Below are positions 1 through 7,480 of a DNA stretch of 7,648 bases, one piece after another. The position numbers were made by a program, and so were the translations under genes. Source of the stretch: an uncultured Synergistales bacterium (GTDB taxonomy: Bacteria > Synergistota > Synergistia > Synergistales > Aminobacteriaceae); assembly GCA_905234205.1 (NCBI GenBank), contig CAJOGG010000167.1, positions 1 through 7,648 on the forward strand, given 5' to 3'. The notes beneath the pieces were generated by a model, which worked only from the letters and a program-made list of their open reading frames with translations, did not search any database and was not told the origin of the DNA. Numbering within the stretch: the first letter of the stretch is position 1; every line of letters starts with the position of its first letter.

Positions 1-1737
1 GAATCGGGCGTTGTTGTGAAAGCGTATGACCACATGGCAAAACTTGATAAATCATGCTCTTCAATTAGCACTGGTGCGCTTCCATATAACATAGCCAAAA
101 TAGCGTGTGATGCTTGTAAGGTTAAACTTGAAACACCTGAAACAACATTCACTAAATTTCCTAATGGACAAGTTACTTTAGGTGTGTATGCAGAGAATGA
201 CATTGAGACTTATAGAGACGTAATAGCTTGGATAGCTCAAACCTGTTGCTGCTTTGTTACTGCTTCAAGGTCGGGCGGCATTCTCTTTAAGTCTTATGAT
301 GGAAATGTGGTAGACACAATTGACGCTGAACACAGATTTACGGGCTGCAGCTTCTCGGATTTCTCAACAAGATACACTGGAATGTCTGTAGTAAATATTG
401 AGAAACAAACCACAAGTTATTACGCAGTATCGCCTGATGATGGTTTAACTTACAACCTTGGCTCAAATCCATTTCTGCAAAACCATATTTCACATTCCCT
501 AACTACCATGAGGGAAGCTATCCTAAATAAGCTGGCGGAAATTGATTACGTTCCCTTCAAAGCAACGTGTATTGGTAACCCCGCATATGATCTTGGTGAT
601 GTGTTAGTGTTCTCGAATGGCATAGCAGACGGCACAAAACGTTCTGTGATCACTAAATACACTTGGAATTATGGTCGCGATTATGTCATGGAAGGTGTGG
701 GCAAAAATCCCGCATTGGCCACTGGTCATAGCAAGAGCGATAAGAATATATCTGGCCTTATTAGTCAAACTGTCTCTAATGAGCTATTTAGATATACAGT
801 ACTGAGAAATGGACAAAGTATTAATATCGCTGACGGGGAAGCACGGTCTATCATTTTCACTCGTTACTTGATGTCATCGCCCTCACATGTGAGATTTAAT
901 TTCGAAGTTCTGTTGACAGTTACGCCTAATGAATCCACCACAAATTTAGCTGAGGTAACGATCGAGAATAACAACACATTAAAATTGACTCCAACGCCAG
1001 CGCCAAATTATGTTATGGTCAGAGCGTTCTATAAAGCTGACGGGGAAGAAATTGTTACGCGTTATCCGATCGAGACATGGGGAGCAGGTAAGCATATTCT
1101 CACTTTGCAATATGATTTAGATCATGACAACACTTTATCTCACAGCTTCGATTTATGGTTAGAAGTTAATGGTGGAAGTGTGGATATTGCGATAAATGAT
1201 GTGTATGAAGTAATTTCATCAACTGGATTAGCGGCTGATAATAACTGGCAGGGAACATTCAGAGCTGACGACGGCAATTTATATGTAGTTAGAGATGGAC
1301 AAGCATACAAAATCCCTGACAGCATTAATATTTATCAATACCCGAGCAAAACATTCTACGAAGCTGACGAAAGCATAAATTATACGGGCCTAGTTGTCAG
1401 AGCTATTTTCGGTGACGGTACATACACAGATATAACGCAGTCTTGTGTGATTAATCCTGTAGAAGGAAGCCCATTTGATCCCACTGATGATAGCTATGTG
1501 GAAATTTACTATACAGTCTACGATATTGAATATGCGACGGGATTTTATCTTACTCAAAATTATGTTACTGGCTTAAATATCACGCCTCCAACCAAGATTA
1601 ATTATCGCAATGGTGAAATCCTTGACTATACGGGATTAGTCGTGAATGCTATTTACAGAGACGGAACGACGCTCAATGTTACAAACTATTGCACCATAAC
1701 CCCAGCAGAAGGAGAAATTTTTAATGGCAATCAATAA
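1..1737 (+). CDS. Phage tail-tip/baseplate hub protein (Tal-like), 5' partial, with C-terminal Ig-like repeats
   Basis: The frame is open from base 1 with no stop, so the GTG at 16 is probably internal and the true start lies upstream; 578 residues are visible. Roughly residues 1-240 resemble the hub domain of siphophage tail-associated proteins in Clostridia phages: VVKAYDHMAKLDKS near the start, ENDIETYRDVIAWIAQ near residues 65-80, and RFTGCSFSDFSTRYTGMSVV near 112-131. Around residues 240-440 comes a beta-rich region (SINIADGEARSI, VETWGAGKHILTLQY-like), the usual region after the hub in this family. From about residue 441 there is one full Ig-like repeat (LVVRAIFGDGTYTDITQSC, NPVEG) and from about 521 half of another, ending TITPAEGEIFNGNQ. 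The hub normally sits at the tail tip and holds receptor-binding parts. The gene ends in mid-domain and overlaps the next gene by 14 nt, which I read as truncation by a cassette insertion. Family assignment is from memory of sequence patterns. Confidence 0.9.
   Translation, partial: ESGVVVKAYDHMAKLDKSCSSISTGALPYNIAKIACDACKVKLETPETTFTKFPNGQVTLGVYAENDIETYRDVIAWIAQTCCCFVTASRSGGILFKSYDGNVVDTIDAEHRFTGCSFSDFSTRYTGMSVVNIEKQTTSYYAVSPDDGLTYNLGSNPFLQNHISHSLTTMREAILNKLAEIDYVPFKATCIGNPAYDLGDVLVFSNGIADGTKRSVITKYTWNYGRDYVMEGVGKNPALATGHSKSDKNISGLISQTVSNELFRYTVLRNGQSINIADGEARSIIFTRYLMSSPSHVRFNFEVLLTVTPNESTTNLAEVTIENNNTLKLTPTPAPNYVMVRAFYKADGEEIVTRYPIETWGAGKHILTLQYDLDHDNTLSHSFDLWLEVNGGSVDIAINDVYEVISSTGLAADNNWQGTFRADDGNLYVVRDGQAYKIPDSINIYQYPSKTFYEADESINYTGLVVRAIFGDGTYTDITQSCVINPVEGSPFDPTDDSYVEIYYTVYDIEYATGFYLTQNYVTGLNITPPTKINYRNGEILDYTGLVVNAIYRDGTTLNVTNYCTITPAEGEIFNGNQ
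1321..1727 (+). repeat. Ig-like (Big_3-type) repeat 1 and the N-terminal half of repeat 2
   Basis: Repeat 1 (1321-1560) shows the pattern seen throughout the downstream protein: a P-x-K-x-x-Y segment, then DESINYTGLVV, DGTYTDIT, a Cys, NPVEG and a final VEIYYTVYD strand. Repeat 2 (from 1561) starts with ITPPTKINY, GEILDYTGLVV and NVTNYCTITPAEGEIF, but stops where the final two strands should begin. The missing strands are found at 2537-2626. Confidence 0.85.
1709..1714 (+). promoter_or_regulatory. Shine-Dalgarno AAGGAG of the first small tail gene, inside the hub gene's codons
   Basis: AAGGAG lies 9 nt before ATG 1724. The same bases encode part of the conserved Ig motif PAEG in the overlapping hub gene, so one stretch serves both as protein motif and ribosome binding site. 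It fixes the start of the next gene at 1724. Confidence 0.75.
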
Positions 1738-2041
1738 AGTAGTTTATGGGACAACAACTCTTTTAGACCTTACGAGCGATACTGTTAGTGCAGCACATTT
1801 AGAAACAGGGTACACCGCCCATGATGCAAGCGGCGAAGTTATTGTGGGCACTCTGAATCCAGGCGGAGCAAGTCCATCAGTCCAGACTAAAACAGTTACG
1901 CCTTATACGACTTCACAAGTTATTACCCCCGATTCTGGTTATGATTATCTCTCACAAGTTACTGTGGCAGCTATTGCTTATACAGAAACGGCAAATGCTG
2001 CGGGTGGAGTTACAGCGACTATAGGAACGGTGGCTCCCTAA
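1724..2041 (+). CDS. Small phage tail-appendage protein, 105 aa
   Basis: The product begins MAINKVVYG, then DLTSDTV, GYTAHDASGEVIVGTL. This N-terminal module of about 44 residues is common in tail-fibre-type proteins of Firmicutes gut phages, where I recall it as hypothetical or tail protein. The C-terminal half (about residues 53-105: KTVTPYTTSQVITPDSGYD, LSQVTVAAI, YTETANAAGGVTATIG) is also a recurrent phage module, predicted beta-rich. There is no signal peptide or membrane segment. ATG 1724 has an AAGGAG site 9 nt upstream and overlaps the hub gene by 14 nt. The stop shares one base with the next start (TAATG), suggesting translational coupling. The first 44 residues match those of the next gene at about 26 positions, so the two arose by duplication. 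A structural role in the tail is likely; the exact function is unknown. Confidence 0.85.
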   Translation: MAINKVVYGTTTLLDLTSDTVSAAHLETGYTAHDASGEVIVGTLNPGGASPSVQTKTVTPYTTSQVITPDSGYDYLSQVTVAAIAYTETANAAGGVTATIGTVAP

Positions 2042-2538
2042 TGGCCGTTAATCATGTTATCTTCGGGGCACAAACATTAATCGACTTGAGAAATGATACT
2101 GTTGAGGCCGATAAACTTCGGAGCGGATATACAGCTCATGATGCTGGTGGTAATTTGATTACAGGAACTTTAGTATCTGCTGCTTTGGACCCCTATGTGT
2201 ATGAACATAATTGCGGGTATATAGCGAATGGACGGTGGATTTATGAGAATCCCACACAAACTTATATCGATATTTATGTGGTGGAAGCTAATCACAGATA
2301 TTTCATAACTTTAGGTGCTGAAGTCGGTACGCGTTTTAGGGCTATGTTCACTACCACGGATATATCGAAGAAAACTTCAGGAAGTGTTACAGGCTCAACT
2401 GTCATTAATACAGATAATCCTGCAGAATTTACAAACGTGATTTATACGCCGTCTTCAAACGGTTACATAGCGATCGGTAAGGACAATGTCGGGAAATCAG
2501 GACTCAAAACGTACGTGTACGATACAACATTAGCTTGG
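1728..2538 (+). other. Inferred 811-bp cassette inserted inside an Ig-like repeat
   Basis: TGG occurs at 1725-1727 and 2536-2538. Joining left and right at this trinucleotide gives codons for F-N-G-Y-R-R-Y-P-VKVVY, one continuous Ig-like repeat with seven residues between the conserved F and the final strand, the same as two other repeats here. The cassette holds nearly all of both small tail genes and ends at the codons for their last residues. Its length is 1 modulo 3, which explains why the two halves of the Ig gene lie in different frames. No transposase, terminal inverted repeat or longer target duplication is seen, so homology-assisted or illegitimate recombination is more likely than transposition. 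Insertion direction is inferred. Confidence 0.6.
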
Positions 2539-2544
2539 TTATAG
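2041..2544 (+). CDS. Phage tail-appendage protein with a C-terminal duplicated 115-aa domain, 167 aa
   Basis: Residues 1-44 (MAVNHVIFG, DLRNDTV, GYTAHDAGGNLITGTL) are a paralogous copy of the preceding protein's N-terminal module. Residues 49-163 form a domain beginning LDPYVYEHN, with YIDIYVVEANHRYFITLGA, RFRAMFTTTDIS, PSSNGYIAIGKDNVG and ending TYVYDTT. A second copy, about two thirds identical, lies inside the long Ig-repeat protein at 3362-3703. I do not recognise the family with certainty; the pattern suggests a beta-sandwich of the carbohydrate-binding type, which is inference. The start ATG overlaps the previous stop by one base (TAATG), with only a weak AGGAA about 13 nt upstream, so coupled reinitiation is likely. 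The gene stops at TAG 2542-2544 immediately after the domain. A receptor-contacting or decorating role is plausible. Confidence 0.85.
   Translation: MAVNHVIFGAQTLIDLRNDTVEADKLRSGYTAHDAGGNLITGTLVSAALDPYVYEHNCGYIANGRWIYENPTQTYIDIYVVEANHRYFITLGAEVGTRFRAMFTTTDISKKTSGSVTGSTVINTDNPAEFTNVIYTPSSNGYIAIGKDNVGKSGLKTYVYDTTLAWL
2185..2529 (+). repeat. Guest domain copy A (115 aa)
   Basis: This is the first of two diverged copies; the other is at 3362-3703. My hand alignment gives about 75 identical residues of about 115, with one single-residue gap. The best conserved blocks are YIDIY, RFRAMFTTTDIS, TPSSNGYIA and KDNVG. The nucleotide sequences are similar but clearly diverged, so the duplication is not recent. 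Confidence 0.85.
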
Positions 2545-2698
2545 GAGGTATCCGGTTAAAGTTGTTTATGATGATGGACACAGTATTCAGGAAGGATATT
2601 TTTATCTGAATGCTATTTTACTCTCAAGAATCTCAGTTACCACACCTCCCACACATCTCACATATAAACCTGGAGAAATTATAGACTATTCCGGACTC
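2534..2698 (+). other. In-frame coding extension upstream of the long Ig-repeat gene, without a usable start codon
   Basis: After the in-frame stop at 2531-2533, the frame of the long Ig gene is open. It reads LGYRRYPVKVVYDDG, then EGYFYLNAILLS, then the start of a new Ig repeat (ISVTTPPTHLTY, GEIIDYSGLVV). The first part (2537-2626) matches the second half of an Ig repeat, so it is protein-coding in origin. No ATG, GTG or TTG occurs in this frame before 2699. The only near-cognate codon with a plausible ribosome site is CTG 2606, with AAGGA ending 9 nt before it. Confidence 0.7.
2543..2548 (+). promoter_or_regulatory. Strong Shine-Dalgarno-like AGGAGG without a matching start
   Basis: AGGAGG overlaps the TAG stop of the preceding gene and looks like an ideal ribosome binding site. 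No start codon in the frame of the long Ig gene lies within range. The nearest candidates, TTG 2562 and ATG 2568/2571/2574, are in another frame and give only a peptide ending at TGA 2607-2609. In the inferred uninterrupted gene these bases encode Arg-Arg, so the match may be accidental. Confidence 0.45.
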
Positions 2699-5600
2699 GT
2701 GGTTACAGCAGAATATTCTGATAGCTCAACTGCTAATGTTACAAACTCATGCACTATTACTCCTGCCGCGGGCAAAGCGTTTGTCCCAGGTGTAGATAAT
2801 TCTGTAACTATCACATATGAAAATCAAAGTACAATTTTGACTTTGAATGAAGCAGTTATTACAGGTCTAACGATTGTTTCGCAAAATCCATGGGAGATTG
2901 CCGCTATATGGTCGGATGGCTCCTATACAGATGTAACGGATTTATGCACATTCACTTATGACGGTAATACAGTCCTTATAGAATATGATGGCTTCTCTAT
3001 TACAGGCGAATTAACAATTGAATCCACTGATCCATTAAGCGTTATCATGGAATACTCAGACGGCTCGGAATTTGATGTTACTGAGGATTGTCAGATAACC
3101 TATAATGGCTACGAAATTATCGTAGAATACGAAGACTTAATAGTCAGTACATGGTTAGTAGCATCTAATCTTCAAATTGTTACGCCACCCACAAAGACTT
3201 CATATATCGCCAATGAAGAAATAGATTATTCAGGAATTGTTGTGAAATACGTTCACAGCGACGGCTCAGAGCATGACGTTACTAATTACTGTGATTTCGA
3301 TCCAGCTTCGGGGACTGTCATCACACAAACCACATATGCCACAATTAGCTGTGCGCCACCATTAGAGCCTTATGTGTATGATCAAAATTCAGGTTATATT
3401 AATAACGGCATTTGGCAAGTTGAGAATCCTACAGGAACTTATATTGATATTTATGAAGTGCAAGCGGGGCATAAATATTGGCTAACATTAGGTGCTACGG
3501 TAGGCAGTCGTTTTAGAGCTATGTTCACGACGACGGATATATCACAGGCTAGCTCAAATGTTACAGGAACATCAATAATTAATGCCAATAATCCAGCAAC
3601 TTATGCAAGCGCAACATACACACCTTCTTCAAACGGTTATATCGCTGTGGCTAAGGATAATGTGGGAGTATCAGGCTTATATACATATCTCTTTGATACA
3701 AGTGCCACAAGCAAAACTGAGAGTGTAACGCTGCCTTTAAGCGTCGCAACATTAGCTTCTATAGCCGTTACAACAATGCCAGACCAAACAGATTATCGTG
3801 ATGGAGCCGCTATCGATTTCTCTGGAATTGCTATTACTGCCACAATGTCAGACGGCGGCACAAGACCTGTTAATGCTGAGGACTGTACATTTAGTCCTGT
3901 AGAAGGGACCGCGTTTGATTCTTCTTCTCCGGTTGTTACAGTTTCTTATGAACTTGGCGGAATTATTGCTTCTACAACATTTGAGCTTGGATTAGTCGCA
4001 TTGACAGGCATAACTATAGGGACATTGCTTCAATCAAATTATGGTTATGGAGAGACATTAATACTTGATGGAACTCCCGTAACAGCAAATTATTCTGATA
4101 ATTCAACGGAAGATGTAACGTTAAGTAGTGGAGTCAGTTTTTCTCCAGCATCGGGCACTTTGGTTACAGTGAACACTGATACTACAATCACGGTGACATA
4201 TACAAATGCTGCGGGTGAAACGGCAACAGAAATTTTCAGTATAACGATTACACCATCAAAATTAATTGGGATAATGGTAACGGCGCCAATAAAGACTAGT
4301 TATCAAATCGGTGATACCATAGATTATACGGGTTTACAAGTTTTTGCTGATTATTCCAATGGAGCTCAAATAGATGTTACAGATGAAGCAACAATGTCTC
4401 CTCCAAATGGTATAACACTTACTAATAATATTCTAATGACAGCCAGCTATGGTGGGTTTATTGCTGCATTGAATAATCCTCAAGTCACGTCTATTCAAGA
4501 ATTAAATCATTTTGAGCTGGATAAAGTAACTTATATAGACGCGGACATTTATTACGGGTATACCAACAAATATCCATTCTTCTTAACAAGATATACCGAG
4601 CAGAAAAACGGGTGGATTATAGAGCATGGATTTGATGAATTTAGGCCAAAATCTTACCGTGCTTGGAGTGTGCAATTTAATCAAGGTACGCCTGCCGCAA
4701 TGGAGTTGAGTAGAGAGGCATTTTATTCTGGTGGCTGGTTCTGGTTTGATGGTGATGATAATAGTGGCTCAAGAGGAGCTTCAAGGTCTAAAGTCGTCGT
4801 CAATACCCAAGAAACTTATCGGCTAATATATGAAAATTATGGGTATCATAGTTTTTCAGTGGGGGATTTAGGAATAGTGTACATATCAGATTTAGGAATT
4901 CCAAGTTCACATAAAATTGCTAACAGCGGTGCTTTGGGATATACTTCTGATAAGTCCATGATGAAGTATACTGATTTGTCGGGCTACCAGCTTAATGATG
5001 AGAATGATTTAACACTTAAACTGGCATACACAACCTCATTGCACTCATCCAGCGATTATTCTATGTTTTTGTGTAACAAGAAGGAAAACTATTCTATTAC
5101 TCCCGTATCAACATATAACAGTCCCACATCTTGCAAGATTAAATTAAGAAGTAACTCCTTTGTCGCATATAAACTGCCTACAGATGATACGAATGGATGG
5201 CAAAGAATAATGATGATCCAAAATTTAACCGGGTATGGAGCTTTGGCATTAAAGGATTATTCTAACGTGCTTTTCTGGGGGAAAAACATAGTCAAAAATT
5301 TCGAAGGAAATGATTGTGCGAAGGATGTCTTGATGTTAGTGTATTCGGTAAGCAACGGAACATTAAGCGCGACAGTATTCAACGTATTATTACGAGACGC
5401 TTTAATTCGTATCAAGGTACCCGTAAAAATATATGTAGCTTCAGAACCGACCAAAACAATTTATGCCGAGAACGAGCTCCTAGATACTACAGGGTTAGTA
5501 GTTAAAGCAGCATATACAGATGGAAGTGAAGAAGATGTTACAAATTCTGTGATATTATCTCCAAATGCTGGTAGCAATATTATCCAGGATTCTACAACAG

Positions 5601-6475
5601 TCGAGGTTAGTTACACAGAATCTGGAGTGTATTTGGAGACGGAATTTACTGTGATTATTGGCAGAGTTCAAAGTTTATCTGTAGCATTTTTGCCGGCCTA
5701 TTCTGATCCCAATGGAATGGATTGTTACAATAGAGCGGGACGAAGGTTATACTACACACCAGGAGAAGATTTTACAGTAACTGCAACAATGATTGACGGA
5801 ACGACGATTGATGTAACCAATGATTGCGAATATTCCCCTTCAAGCACGACAAGTTATGGTAGTCCTGTTTGGAATTACAACGATACTGTCGTTACAGCAA
5901 CTTATACCGCAGGAAACACGATCACTATACCTATAGAATTTCCTAATAACTATAAATTTGCCCCATATACTATTACTCCTCCCACAAAAACTAACTATAG
6001 AGTGGGAGAAGCTCTTGATTTAACAGGTGCAGATTTGCAAAGCGGTTTTACTTATACAAATGGTGATTTATTGTCTGAGGACTGGCATGCAAGAATATCC
6101 AATTCTGAAATAATTGGGGACTTTAAGGGCGTCAATGAATTTGAAGAATCATATGGTGCTACTCCCCAAATAATAACTGAAAATACATCGCGCATATGGT
6201 CATATTTATATCTTGAAGACGGCGAATATGTGTCAGCGTATTTCGATATAACAGTAGCTACACTCCGGTCTATCGCAATCACTCCTCCGACAAAGACTAC
6301 GTATATCATTGGAGAGAATATTGATTATTCTGGCATTATAGTCACAGCAAATTATTCTGACGGCTCAAGTGATGATGTTACAGCAGTTACAGCAGACACA
6401 CTAACCACAATAACCGTTTCATACACGAATATTGGTGGTGAGACGGCTACAGCAACATTCGAAATCACAATTTAA
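2699..6475 (+). CDS. Long Ig-like (Big_3-type) repeat tail protein, 1258 aa from GTG; probable 3' part of a split gene
   Basis: The protein is an array of about eleven Ig-like repeats of about 80 residues, complete or atypical, with the pattern TPPTKT-Y, GE-IDYSGLVV, A-YSDGS-DVT, Cys, P-A-G and a VTVSY strand. By residue from GTG: the rest of a repeat (1-54), two shortened repeats (55-153), a repeat (156-353) interrupted by the guest domain (222-335), three further repeats (354-596), an unrecognised region (about 597-907), then four more (about 908-1258), two of them atypical. There is no signal peptide, TM segment or coiled coil. Ig-like repeats in tail proteins generally extend or decorate the tail and may bind surface or mucus glycans; this role is inferred here. 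GTG 2699 falls inside a repeat (GL-VVTAEY) and has no ribosome site, so it is a nominal start; coding sequence clearly extends back to 2537. The gene may be the severed continuation of the hub gene, translated poorly or by an unusual route. Confidence 0.8.
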   Translation: MVTAEYSDSSTANVTNSCTITPAAGKAFVPGVDNSVTITYENQSTILTLNEAVITGLTIVSQNPWEIAAIWSDGSYTDVTDLCTFTYDGNTVLIEYDGFSITGELTIESTDPLSVIMEYSDGSEFDVTEDCQITYNGYEIIVEYEDLIVSTWLVASNLQIVTPPTKTSYIANEEIDYSGIVVKYVHSDGSEHDVTNYCDFDPASGTVITQTTYATISCAPPLEPYVYDQNSGYINNGIWQVENPTGTYIDIYEVQAGHKYWLTLGATVGSRFRAMFTTTDISQASSNVTGTSIINANNPATYASATYTPSSNGYIAVAKDNVGVSGLYTYLFDTSATSKTESVTLPLSVATLASIAVTTMPDQTDYRDGAAIDFSGIAITATMSDGGTRPVNAEDCTFSPVEGTAFDSSSPVVTVSYELGGIIASTTFELGLVALTGITIGTLLQSNYGYGETLILDGTPVTANYSDNSTEDVTLSSGVSFSPASGTLVTVNTDTTITVTYTNAAGETATEIFSITITPSKLIGIMVTAPIKTSYQIGDTIDYTGLQVFADYSNGAQIDVTDEATMSPPNGITLTNNILMTASYGGFIAALNNPQVTSIQELNHFELDKVTYIDADIYYGYTNKYPFFLTRYTEQKNGWIIEHGFDEFRPKSYRAWSVQFNQGTPAAMELSREAFYSGGWFWFDGDDNSGSRGASRSKVVVNTQETYRLIYENYGYHSFSVGDLGIVYISDLGIPSSHKIANSGALGYTSDKSMMKYTDLSGYQLNDENDLTLKLAYTTSLHSSSDYSMFLCNKKENYSITPVSTYNSPTSCKIKLRSNSFVAYKLPTDDTNGWQRIMMIQNLTGYGALALKDYSNVLFWGKNIVKNFEGNDCAKDVLMLVYSVSNGTLSATVFNVLLRDALIRIKVPVKIYVASEPTKTIYAENELLDTTGLVVKAAYTDGSEEDVTNSVILSPNAGSNIIQDSTTVEVSYTESGVYLETEFTVIIGRVQSLSVAFLPAYSDPNGMDCYNRAGRRLYYTPGEDFTVTATMIDGTTIDVTNDCEYSPSSTTSYGSPVWNYNDTVVTATYTAGNTITIPIEFPNNYKFAPYTITPPTKTNYRVGEALDLTGADLQSGFTYTNGDLLSEDWHARISNSEIIGDFKGVNEFEESYGATPQIITENTSRIWSYLYLEDGEYVSAYFDITVATLRSIAITPPTKTTYIIGENIDYSGIIVTANYSDGSSDDVTAVTADTLTTITVSYTNIGGETATATFEITI
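2861..3157 (+). repeat. Two shortened Ig-like repeats, about 47 and 52 aa
   Basis: The two tandem units are 2861-3001 (TGLTIVSQNPWEIAAIWSDG, TDVTDLCTFTYDG) and 3002-3157 (TGELTIESTDPLSVIMEYSD, FDVTEDCQITYNG). Both keep the DGS-x-x-DVT-x-x-C core and the final strand. Both lack the PPTK-x-x-Y-x-x-GE-x-x-DYSGL segment and the P-A-G-x-x-F loop of the normal repeats. Confidence 0.7.
3362..3703 (+). repeat. Guest domain copy B (114 aa) inserted within an Ig-like repeat
   Basis: It begins LEPYVYDQN and ends LFDTS, and is about two thirds identical to 2185-2529. The flanking protein is one Ig repeat cut open. The N-terminal part (from 3164) runs from SNLQIVTPPTKTSY through CDFDPASG to the ATISC strand, and the C-terminal part resumes at KTESVTLPLSVATL before the next repeat starts at ASIAVTT. 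The insertion point is the hairpin between the last two strands. Confidence 0.7.
4487..5416 (+). other. Unrecognised 310-aa region between Ig-like repeats
   Basis: This stretch (TSIQELNHFELDKV to DALIRIK) breaks the Ig array. It lacks the DYSGL and DGS-DVT patterns and is rich in aromatic and charged residues, for example YRAWSVQF, GGWFWFDGDD and SGSRGASRSK. It lies in the same open frame as the repeats on both sides. The Ig repeat before it looks complete, though short, and a new one starts after it at about 5423. It could be a receptor-binding head carried by Ig spacers; I do not recognise the family. Confidence 0.55.
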
Positions 6476-6503
6476 CTTTCGGCTCACTGGTCCGGAGGTT
6501 TTT

Positions 6504-6510
6504 AAGGAGG
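6504..6510 (+). promoter_or_regulatory. Shine-Dalgarno AAGGAGG deciding the start at ATG 6518
   Basis: AAGGAGG lies 7 nt before ATG 6518 and only 4 nt before an in-frame TTG at 6515, so ATG 6518 is the better start. A second GGAGG at 6494-6498 lies too far upstream. The short gap from 6476 holds no gene or convincing terminator. Confidence 0.75.
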
Positions 6511-6517
6511 TGAATTG

Positions 6518-6928
6518 ATGAGCCTTCAAGAAATTATCAAGGTTGGAAATTTAGCAGGGGGAACGATTATGCTTATTCTGCTGATGTCGCTAATACAGAT
6601 TAGTCCGTTGAGGTTGAATCCATGGGATAGGATATTCAGGTGGCTTGGGAGAAAGCTGAACTGTGAAACAGATGCTGAGCTTATAGGACTTCGCGAGCAG
6701 CTTCAAGACCTGTGGATAGATTCACACAGACAAGGCATACTTAGATTTGCCCGTGAATGCCGAGCAGAAATTATTCACAGTTCAGACGAATGGGGAAATA
6801 TCTTAACTATGGCCGCGAACTACGAAGCATACTGTCATAAGAATGGAATTGTGAATGGTGTAATTAGAGCGGACATTGAGTTCATCAGAAATCTTTATCA
6901 AGAATTAAGCCGTGAACATAGATTATGA
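6518..6928 (+). CDS. Phage lysis-module membrane protein, single N-terminal TM, 136 aa
   Basis: Residues about 9-27 (VGNLAGGTIMLILLMSLIQ) form one hydrophobic segment. The motif ISPLRLNPWDRIFRWLGRKLN follows, then a mostly charged, probably helical cytoplasmic part containing LREQLQDLWIDSHRQ, RILRF-like RECRAEI, and NYEAYCHKNG. This layout (short TM, ISP-x-R-x-NPW, a helical tail with a YEAYC-type motif) recurs just before holin and endolysin genes in Firmicutes gut phages, where it is usually called hypothetical or holin-like. With only one TM it could assist the holin or act in membrane anchoring, but the sequence does not settle this. The gene begins 42 nt after the long Ig gene and ends one base into the ribosome site of the next gene, so the lysis genes are probably co-translated. 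Confidence 0.85.
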   Translation: MSLQEIIKVGNLAGGTIMLILLMSLIQISPLRLNPWDRIFRWLGRKLNCETDAELIGLREQLQDLWIDSHRQGILRFARECRAEIIHSSDEWGNILTMAANYEAYCHKNGIVNGVIRADIEFIRNLYQELSREHRL

Positions 6929-6942
6929 AGGAGTGAAATTTT

Positions 6943-7155
6943 ATGAAAATCGATTGGGGTAAGAAGCTCACAAGCAGAAAATTTTGGATGTCCTTGGCTA
7001 CGTTTGTCTCGATGATGTTCGTAGCTTTGGGTGGAACTCAGGATAGAGCGACACAAATAACGTCTTTAATCATGGCTGGCGGAGCAGCGATTGCTTATAC
7101 GCTTGGGGAAGGATTTATCGATGCTGTGAAATCGGAGGAGGAAGACGATGGGTAG
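6943..7155 (+). CDS. Putative phage holin, 70 aa, two TM segments
   Basis: The small protein has a basic N-terminus (MKIDWGKKLTSRKFW), a first hydrophobic segment at about residues 15-31, a short turn with GGTQDRATQ, a second at about 39-55 (ITSLIMAGGAAIAYTLGEG), and an acidic C-terminus (KSEEEDDG). Size, two TM segments, a charged tail and a place directly before lysin genes are typical of holins, which open the cytoplasmic membrane at the end of infection so that the endolysin reaches the wall. The opening K-I-x-W-x-x-K-L-x-S-R-K-F-W pattern is one I associate with Clostridia phage holins. AAGGAG at 6928-6933 lies 9 nt before the ATG. The gene overlaps the next by 8 nt. The call rests on context and topology. 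Confidence 0.8.
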   Translation: MKIDWGKKLTSRKFWMSLATFVSMMFVALGGTQDRATQITSLIMAGGAAIAYTLGEGFIDAVKSEEEDDG

Positions 7156-7480
7156 TTACAAGACCTATTATGTCATGAAAAACGGCGAAAATCTCAAAAC
7201 AGTAAGGAGTTTACAAACGGCAAAAGAGCTGGCTGAACAAGCAGGGGCGGAAATAGTTTGTGATGGAGAATGCATTTATAAAGCGAATGTGGGAGAACGT
7301 TACATCCTGACCAGTCTTATGAATGTCCGAAGCTCTCCAGGCGGTGAGATACTCGGAACTGCATCTGCTGGTACGGTTGTAGAAGTTTATGAAATCAAAG
7401 ATGACTGGCTACGTGTGAAATGGAAAGATGGCTTTGCATATATTCAATACGGAAATGGTCAATTCGCAGGCAGGGTTTAG
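7148..7480 (+). CDS. Small SH3-domain (SH3_3-type) lysis-associated protein, 110 aa
   Basis: Residues about 52-102 form a bacterial SH3-type domain: LTSLMNVRSSPGGEILGTAS, AGTVVEVYEIKDDWLRVKW and GFAYIQY. It has the N-V-R-S-S-P motif, a G-T turn, and the late D-W-L-R-V and A-Y-I strands. Residues 1-45 (YYVMKNGENLKTVRSLQTAK, AEQAGAEIVCDGECIY) are a separate small module often found near phage lysins. Such domains usually bind peptidoglycan and are often fused to the enzymatic part of an endolysin; here the domain has its own gene, just upstream of the peptidase. There is no signal peptide or TM segment, so export would rely on the holin. The ribosome site GGAGG at 7134-7138 lies within the codons for the acidic tail of the holin, 9 nt before the ATG. 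A hairpin overlaps its stop codon. Confidence 0.82.
   Translation: MGSYKTYYVMKNGENLKTVRSLQTAKELAEQAGAEIVCDGECIYKANVGERYILTSLMNVRSSPGGEILGTASAGTVVEVYEIKDDWLRVKWKDGFAYIQYGNGQFAGRV

What the first reader, a model, noticed from the sequence alone, without database searches (positions are those of the whole stretch)
1561..2626. One Ig-like repeat is split in two by an 811-bp cassette carrying two tail genes
The hub gene stops after PAEGEIFNG, in mid-repeat. The missing strands (YRRYPVKVVYDDG, EGYFYLN) appear at 2540-2611 in another frame, right after the second small gene. Joining at the shared TGG (1725-1727 / 2536-2538) gives F-NGYRRYP-VKVVY, with seven residues between F and the strand. Repeats at 1321-1560 (F-DPTDDSY-VEIYY) and 2627-2860 (F-VPGVDNS-VTITY) also have seven. 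The length of 811, 1 mod 3, accounts for the frame change. This implies an ancestral hub-plus-Ig gene of at least about 1,880 codons cut by insertion of an appendage cassette.
Basis: partly seen in the sequence, partly recalled or inferred. Interest (0 to 1): 0.8.

Follow-up and report, generated by a model that had tools for sequence, protein, structure and literature searches.

The report
Ig domain split between two genes
In a phage tail region from a gut bacterium's genome assembly, one immunoglobulin-like building block is divided between two separate genes; the same break point recurs in dozens of related tail-hub proteins, and the two halves likely fit together to fix a long fibre to the tail hub.

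Summary
The split repeat is real. The hub gene (1-1737) stops after strand E of its second Ig-like repeat; strands F-G lie at 2549-2611, behind two small genes, at the head of a 1313-codon open fibre frame. A profile of nine other fibres' N-termini finds this piece with 51 bits; the next best match in six frames is 6.1.

It is not a recent cut at a shared TGG. All 35 close hub relatives measured end 2-9 residues past the same column and fall in one clade. Twelve of the 15 best fibre relatives begin with the F-G half.

Two longer hubs add whole Ig repeats but still leave this one without F-G: an open slot. Best reading: hub (A-E) and fibre (F-G) complete one Ig fold in trans, anchoring the fibre. 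That step is inferred; no complex was modelled. A similar small-gene pair sits among head genes elsewhere, so it looks like a movable cassette. In this window copy the fibre's start is missing.

The parts
1..1737 (+). 3' part of the tail-hub gene (578 codons in the window; near-identical database copy P0015 has 688 aa)
   Evidence: PHROG 23052 E 1.4e-86 and tail PHROG 6616; model matches Mu gp44-type hubs
787..1227 (+). C1q/TNF-like domain of the hub (P0015 residues 373-519)
1321..1560 (+). complete Ig-like repeat 1 of the hub
   Evidence: six strands in the model, F and G included; position
1561..1734 (+). half Ig-like repeat 2: strands A-E, then stop
1724..2041 (+). small gene 1 (105 aa), overlapping the hub stop
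   Evidence: PHROG 13589 and 31573 matches; relatives in G002:C13 and G000:C45
2041..2544 (+). small gene 2 (167 aa), N-terminus 51% identical to that of gene 1 over 55 aa, plus a YVYD-type domain
2543..2548 (+). ribosome-binding-site-like hexamer of the fibre gene; no start codon follows in this copy
   Evidence: comparison with C137; no ATG, GTG or TTG in frame before 2699
2549..2611 (+). F-G half of an Ig-like repeat at the head of the fibre frame
   Evidence: 51.0 bits, i-E 9.3e-16 over 2543-2638; position
2534..6475 (+). long open frame of Ig-like repeats, the fibre gene (1313 codons stop to stop; first common start codon GTG at 2699)
   Evidence: Big_3 E 6.7e-25
2613..2833 (+). one Ig-like repeat present here and absent from C137
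   Evidence: the two BLAST blocks flank it
3362..3675 (+). YVYD-type domain inside the fibre, 70% identical in DNA to the one in small gene 2

Best explanation
The tail-hub gene ends inside an Ig-like repeat after strands A-E and the long fibre frame begins with strands F-G of such a repeat, and the two halves are predicted to complete one Ig fold between two separate proteins, which would fix the fibre to the hub. Shown: the break point; its recurrence at the same place in 39 of the 44 closest hub relatives; the F-G start in 12 of the 15 best fibre relatives; a ribosome-binding site and start codon of the fibre's own in sister copy C137. Predicted by model: a gp44-like hub carrying a C1q/TNF-like domain and one and a half Ig repeats, with no F-G pair at the end. 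Inferred: that the fibre's F-G hairpin fills that slot during assembly; that the two small genes between are a movable appendage cassette lodged at the gene border; and that this window copy, which lacks the fibre's start, is defective or wrongly assembled for the fibre, while intact copies exist.
For: Half repeat at the hub end: 35 of 35 aligned hubs end 2-9 residues past one column, which is F in 34, with Y two residues on in 31; the half repeat is about as conserved (60.3% pairwise identity) as the A-E part of repeat 1 (56.5%). P0025 and P0032, in different sub-clades, run on with whole Ig repeats yet repeat 2 still lacks F-G. F-G half at the fibre start in 12 of the top 15 fibre hits and 0 of the other 105 listed (nine of the 12 helped build that profile, which describes what is visible). 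The profile without C137 and its near copies still finds P0121-P0123 (about 30 bits) and the window (51 bits), against at most 15.4 bits for any internal repeat in 240 proteins. Separate starts in C137. Hub model. Profile finds no F-G match at the starts of the two small genes.
Against: Hub and fibre are seen together in one locus only, this window; the G002 contig stops before the fibre and C137 starts after the hub, and the database proteins have no context, so hub-fibre pairing elsewhere is inferred. No complex could be modelled. The fibre model has low confidence (mean pLDDT 55.9): it draws strands 2-10 and 15-23, which neither supports nor excludes a hairpin that stands alone. Three of the 15 best fibre hits do not start with F-G. 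In this window copy the fibre has no usual start codon before 2699, past the F-G half. Hub residues 523-527 just before the Ig part have pLDDT under 50, and pTM is only 0.52.
Confidence: 0.55

Rival explanations
1. Relic: an old insertion of the cassette divided a hub-fibre gene, and both half domains are tolerated leftovers without a partner role.
For: Distant hubs have an intact repeat 2 in one protein. A similar small-gene pair is found at other places.
Against: The half repeat stays as conserved as the complete one and ends at a fixed point in 35 of 35 hubs. The fibre F-G start is recognisable in fibres only 30-44% identical to C137's N-terminal 200 aa. Two longer hubs keep the slot empty. 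Ig-less hubs branch between the split and intact clades.
Confidence: 0.22
2. Each half is completed by something else: the hub slot by a neighbouring hub subunit, another tail protein or a small gene product; the fibre hairpin by another fibre chain.
For: Hubs of the matched gp44 type are trimers (recalled), so swapping between subunits is possible; small gene 1 overlaps the hub stop, which suggests joint translation.
Against: The F-G profile finds no match at the starts of the two small genes. The missing and the extra strands are the same pair of one fold.
Confidence: 0.15
3. Hub and fibre are made as one protein through frameshifting, ribosome bypass or RNA splicing over the cassette.
Against: In C137 the fibre has its own ribosome-binding site and start codon; the cassette holds two complete genes with relatives elsewhere; G002's hub stops at the same place and a small-gene start follows at once. 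No slippery-site or intron analysis was run.
Confidence: 0.03
4. One reading: a recent insertion at a shared TGG cut a single gene in this phage.
For: Half repeats on both sides and a cassette with relatives elsewhere.
Against: Same hub end in 39 of the 44 closest relatives; G002 hub, 70% identical, ends there too; sister sequence at the right border.
Confidence: 0.03

Closest known systems
Donor-strand complementation of chaperone-usher pili (recalled, not looked up)
   Same: An incomplete Ig-like fold is completed by a strand from the N-terminus of another subunit.
   Different: Here, if the reading is right, a two-strand F-G hairpin is supplied rather than one strand, in a phage hub, and binding has not been shown.
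Phage tail spikes whose whole Ig-like domain is encoded as a separate downstream gene (PMC12309495, passages seen)
   Same: A part of a gpJ-like tail spike lies in its own gene right behind the spike gene; predicted only.
   Different: There a whole Ig domain is separate; here one domain is divided inside its fold, between strands E and F.
Fused hub-Ig proteins of related phages (P0045, P0047, P0053, P0055, P0059, P0060; L028, L030)
   Same: Homologous hub core and Ig repeats, repeat 2 at the same position.
   Different: Repeat 2 is intact in one protein, and in L038 and L039 the YVYD-type small genes lie upstream of the hub.
SpyTag/SpyCatcher and other engineered split Ig-like domains (recalled)
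   Same: One Ig-like fold from two separate chains.
   Different: Those were cut by design and bond covalently; this division is natural and no covalent bond is implied.

Membership tests
Phage central tail hub (Mu gp44 / gp27 fold) | hub fold in the N-terminal part | tested here: met
Phage central tail hub (Mu gp44 / gp27 fold) | gene lies behind tape measure and distal-tail genes | tested here: inconclusive
   G002: a 1113-codon frame, a 120-aa gene, then the hub; the roles of the first two were judged by eye, and the window begins inside the hub
Bacterial Ig-like domain group 3 (PF07523) | profile match above the curated cut-off | tested here: met
   hub 23.1 bits, fibre 87.6 bits, cut-off 21.2; the hub's best stretch covers profile 2-35 of 68, but some other matched repeats stop there too
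Split domain completed in trans (donor-strand type) | acceptor lacks strands of its fold | tested here: met
Split domain completed in trans (donor-strand type) | donor carries exactly those strands at its end | tested here: met
Split domain completed in trans (donor-strand type) | acceptor and donor bind and complete one fold | not testable with these tools
   no two-chain prediction or binding assay available
Programmed frameshift or ribosome bypass | downstream part has no start of its own | tested here: not met
   C137 has ribosome-binding site and start codon; in the window copy itself the start is absent
Insertion with target-site duplication | short direct repeat marking both borders, empty site in relatives | tested here: not met
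   TGG only in the window; in C137 it is not the border, and no empty site was seen among the close hub relatives

The most novel reading that the evidence does not exclude
A natural split-Ig lock: phages of this lineage divide one Ig domain between strands E and F, leave an open A-E slot on each hub subunit, and give each fibre an F-G hairpin plug at its N-terminus. Completion of the fold in trans couples whichever fibre is encoded, so the gene border becomes a safe site for appendage cassettes and fibre exchange.
Probability: 0.42. Interest if true: 0.75.

Novelty: new variant of a known kind. Interest (0 to 1): 0.6.

Why it matters
If true, one Ig domain shared between two genes is a joint between tail hub and fibre that can be recognised from sequence alone. 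It would predict which fibre belongs to which hub, explain how fibre genes can differ while the hub stays the same, and offer a small natural split-Ig pair that two short proteins can test. It also warns annotators that an Ig-repeat gene starting in mid-domain need not be a fragment.

Tried and rejected
Recent insertion at TGG: rejected by the relatives and by C137. Frameshift, bypass or splicing: set aside because of the fibre's own start in C137; no slippery-site or intron analysis was run. Ancestral fused gene: intact hubs exist, but the tree (quick method, SH-aLRT only, long branches flagged, root arbitrary; the ten 'no Ig' rows were labelled from the C-terminus listing or, for L020) has Ig-less hubs branching between, so it stays open. 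Dulem virus 34 and MT835543 as further split cases: the first has an Ig gene annotated as one uninterrupted CDS behind baseplate genes, the second carries no annotation and was not analysed. Viral-contig scans: the hub alignment gave one contig that ends inside the hub (L060); fibres P0125 and P0128 gave no relative. A third protein search, with the first 42 residues of P0128, found only itself. Phage records: window DNA no match; the hub protein matched 26 of 50,697 records, all under 60% identity. In 185 genomes of the phylum 4 match the hub profile: the own genome, G002, a short piece in G051 and a weak Ig-only match in G057. The fibre AlphaFold model (mean pLDDT 55.9) is too poor to use. 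The PDB sequence search gave only two weak Ig matches. Whether the window's 14-bp difference is real or from assembly could not be told; no reads were available.

Literature: ten searches of an open-access library. Six returned no paper, the others 4, 3, 5 and 34 (10 of the 34 listed). No listed title names a natural split Ig domain in a phage tail; 24 papers were not listed. Seen: passages of PMC12309495 and PMC9022992; of the rest only listings.
Full report
WHAT IS IN THE WINDOW. The window is contig C167 of a 311-contig genome assembly, G000. In order, the window holds the 3' part of a tail-hub gene (1-1737), two small genes (1724-2041, 2041-2544), a long open frame of Ig-like repeats (2534-6475) and lysis-type genes (holin, SH3 and amidase matches).

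THE OTHER HALF. In frame 2 at 2549-2611 the sequence YPVKVVYDDG...EGYFYLN has the F-G pattern. A profile from nine other fibre N-termini, without C137 or its near copies, scores window 2543-2638 at 51.0 bits (i-E 9.3e-16); the best other match in six frames is 6.1 bits.

Contig C137 of the same assembly is identical to window 2451-2550 over its first 100 bases and then differs. There, 14 further bases lie between the ribosome-binding site and the F strand and contain a start codon, giving a fibre that begins MQYPVKVVY. Database proteins P0121-P0123 begin the same way. The window has no ATG, GTG or TTG in that frame before 2699; rarer starts were not scored. So 'GYRR' in the proposed loop is not fibre sequence, and the frame change is due to the 14-bp difference. 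In C137 small gene 2 and the fibre share a frame, divided by a stop. In this copy the fibre's usual start is missing; intact copies exist. C137 begins exactly where the two contigs start to share 100 bases, as at a fork in an assembly graph (inference), so a real loss and an assembly product cannot be told apart.

THE SPLIT IS OLD AND FIXED. Of the 44 closest hub relatives (P0001-P0044; 120 of 2150 hits were listed), 39 end in the half repeat (three of them N-terminally cut), 2 run on, and 3 are cut before the repeats. Thirty-five of the 36 long ones were aligned (P0021, a near copy of P0019, left out): all 35 end 2-9 residues after the same column, which is F in 34, with Y two residues later in 31. 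Pairwise identity is 60.3% in the half repeat, 56.5% in the A-E part of repeat 1, 64.3% in its F-G part and 74.0% in the hub core. G002's hub ends there too, and a small-gene start follows at once. On a quick IQ-TREE of 57 hub cores the 36 split hubs and the 2 extended ones form one clade, SH-aLRT 100. Hubs with an intact second repeat form another, with Ig-less hubs attached between; long branches are flagged and the root is arbitrary. A fused ancestor is possible but not shown.

THE EMPTY SLOT PERSISTS. P0025 and P0032, in different sub-clades, continue with complete Ig repeats, yet their second repeat goes from the conserved F straight to the next repeat without F-G. If the missing strands were only the mark of a gene break, such longer hubs should have a whole repeat 2, unless they were fused again later. 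This is the strongest sign that the vacancy itself is used.

THE PLUG FAMILY. Among fibre hits (120 of 272 listed), an F-G profile matches within the first 25 residues in 12, all in the top 15, and in 0 of the other 105. Nine of these 12 were themselves used to build it, so the 12 is a description, and the 0 of 105 and the leave-out scores are the test: without C137 and P0121-P0123 the profile still gives those three about 30 bits, against at most 15.4 bits for any internal repeat in the 240 proteins held. The other three of the 15 (P0126, P0133, P0135) start inside other domains and may be fragments. The nine are otherwise diverse, 30-44% identical to C137's N-terminal 200 aa. Weak internal matches fall on F-G strands: in intact hubs P0047, P0049, P0059 and P0060 (4.5-7.8 bits) they begin 37-38 residues after repeat 2's tyrosine-glycine motif, about where split hubs stop. 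P0131 and P0132 begin MKGGLFL, which suggests that a gene caller started inside a ribosome-binding site (inference).

THE CASSETTE. The two small genes share an N-terminal module (51% over 55 aa); the second has a YVYD-type domain also found inside the fibre. A similar pair lies between a capsid gene (Phage_capsid 5.2e-83) and a head-tail connector gene (1.3e-20) in G002:C13. Related genes lie among head genes (Mu-type portal, Mu F-like, capsid E) in G000:C45. YVYD-type genes lie upstream of the hub in L038 and L039. In G002 small gene 1 stops after 13 codons at a HEARO RNA (133.3 bits) and an RRXRR frame (8.3e-44).

MECHANISM. I commit to completion in trans: a hub with an A-E acceptor and a fibre with an F-G donor. 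Shown: anatomy, recurrence, a separate start in the sister copy. Inferred: docking, stoichiometry, exchange of fibres. Odds: 0.55; relic 0.22; other partner 0.15; one protein by recoding 0.03; recent insertion 0.03. The main gap is that hub and fibre are seen together in one locus only and that no complex could be modelled.

Noticed in passing
L035 (G002:C105) 7620-8215: A HEARO RNA followed by an RRXRR (IscB-type) frame interrupts small gene 1 right behind the split hub; the contig ends inside that frame.
   Followed up: partly
L007 (G000:C137) 1-2774 against window 2451-7480: Two contigs of one assembly share 100 identical bases, then carry different fibre versions (703 and over 1250 aa) and different lysis genes behind them (a glycosyl hydrolase 108 gene in C137), as if fibre and lysis ends were exchanged at this border or came from two strains.
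   Followed up: partly
window 2837-3165 and L007 182-480: Compact Ig-like repeats that lack the usual first strands (about 50 residues each), next to full-length ones.
   Followed up: no
L073 (G002:C13) 1513-2616 and L008 (G000:C45) 5170-7813: Genes like the two small genes sit among head genes, which suggests head-attached appendages of the same family.
   Followed up: partly
L040 (G051:C36) 9954-10403, minus strand: A hub fragment, 80% identical over 128 aa, stands without other phage genes recognised by eye next to it: a likely phage remnant.
   Followed up: no
window 787-1227: The hub carries a predicted C1q/TNF-like domain like those of bacterial lectins, between hub core and Ig part.
   Followed up: partly
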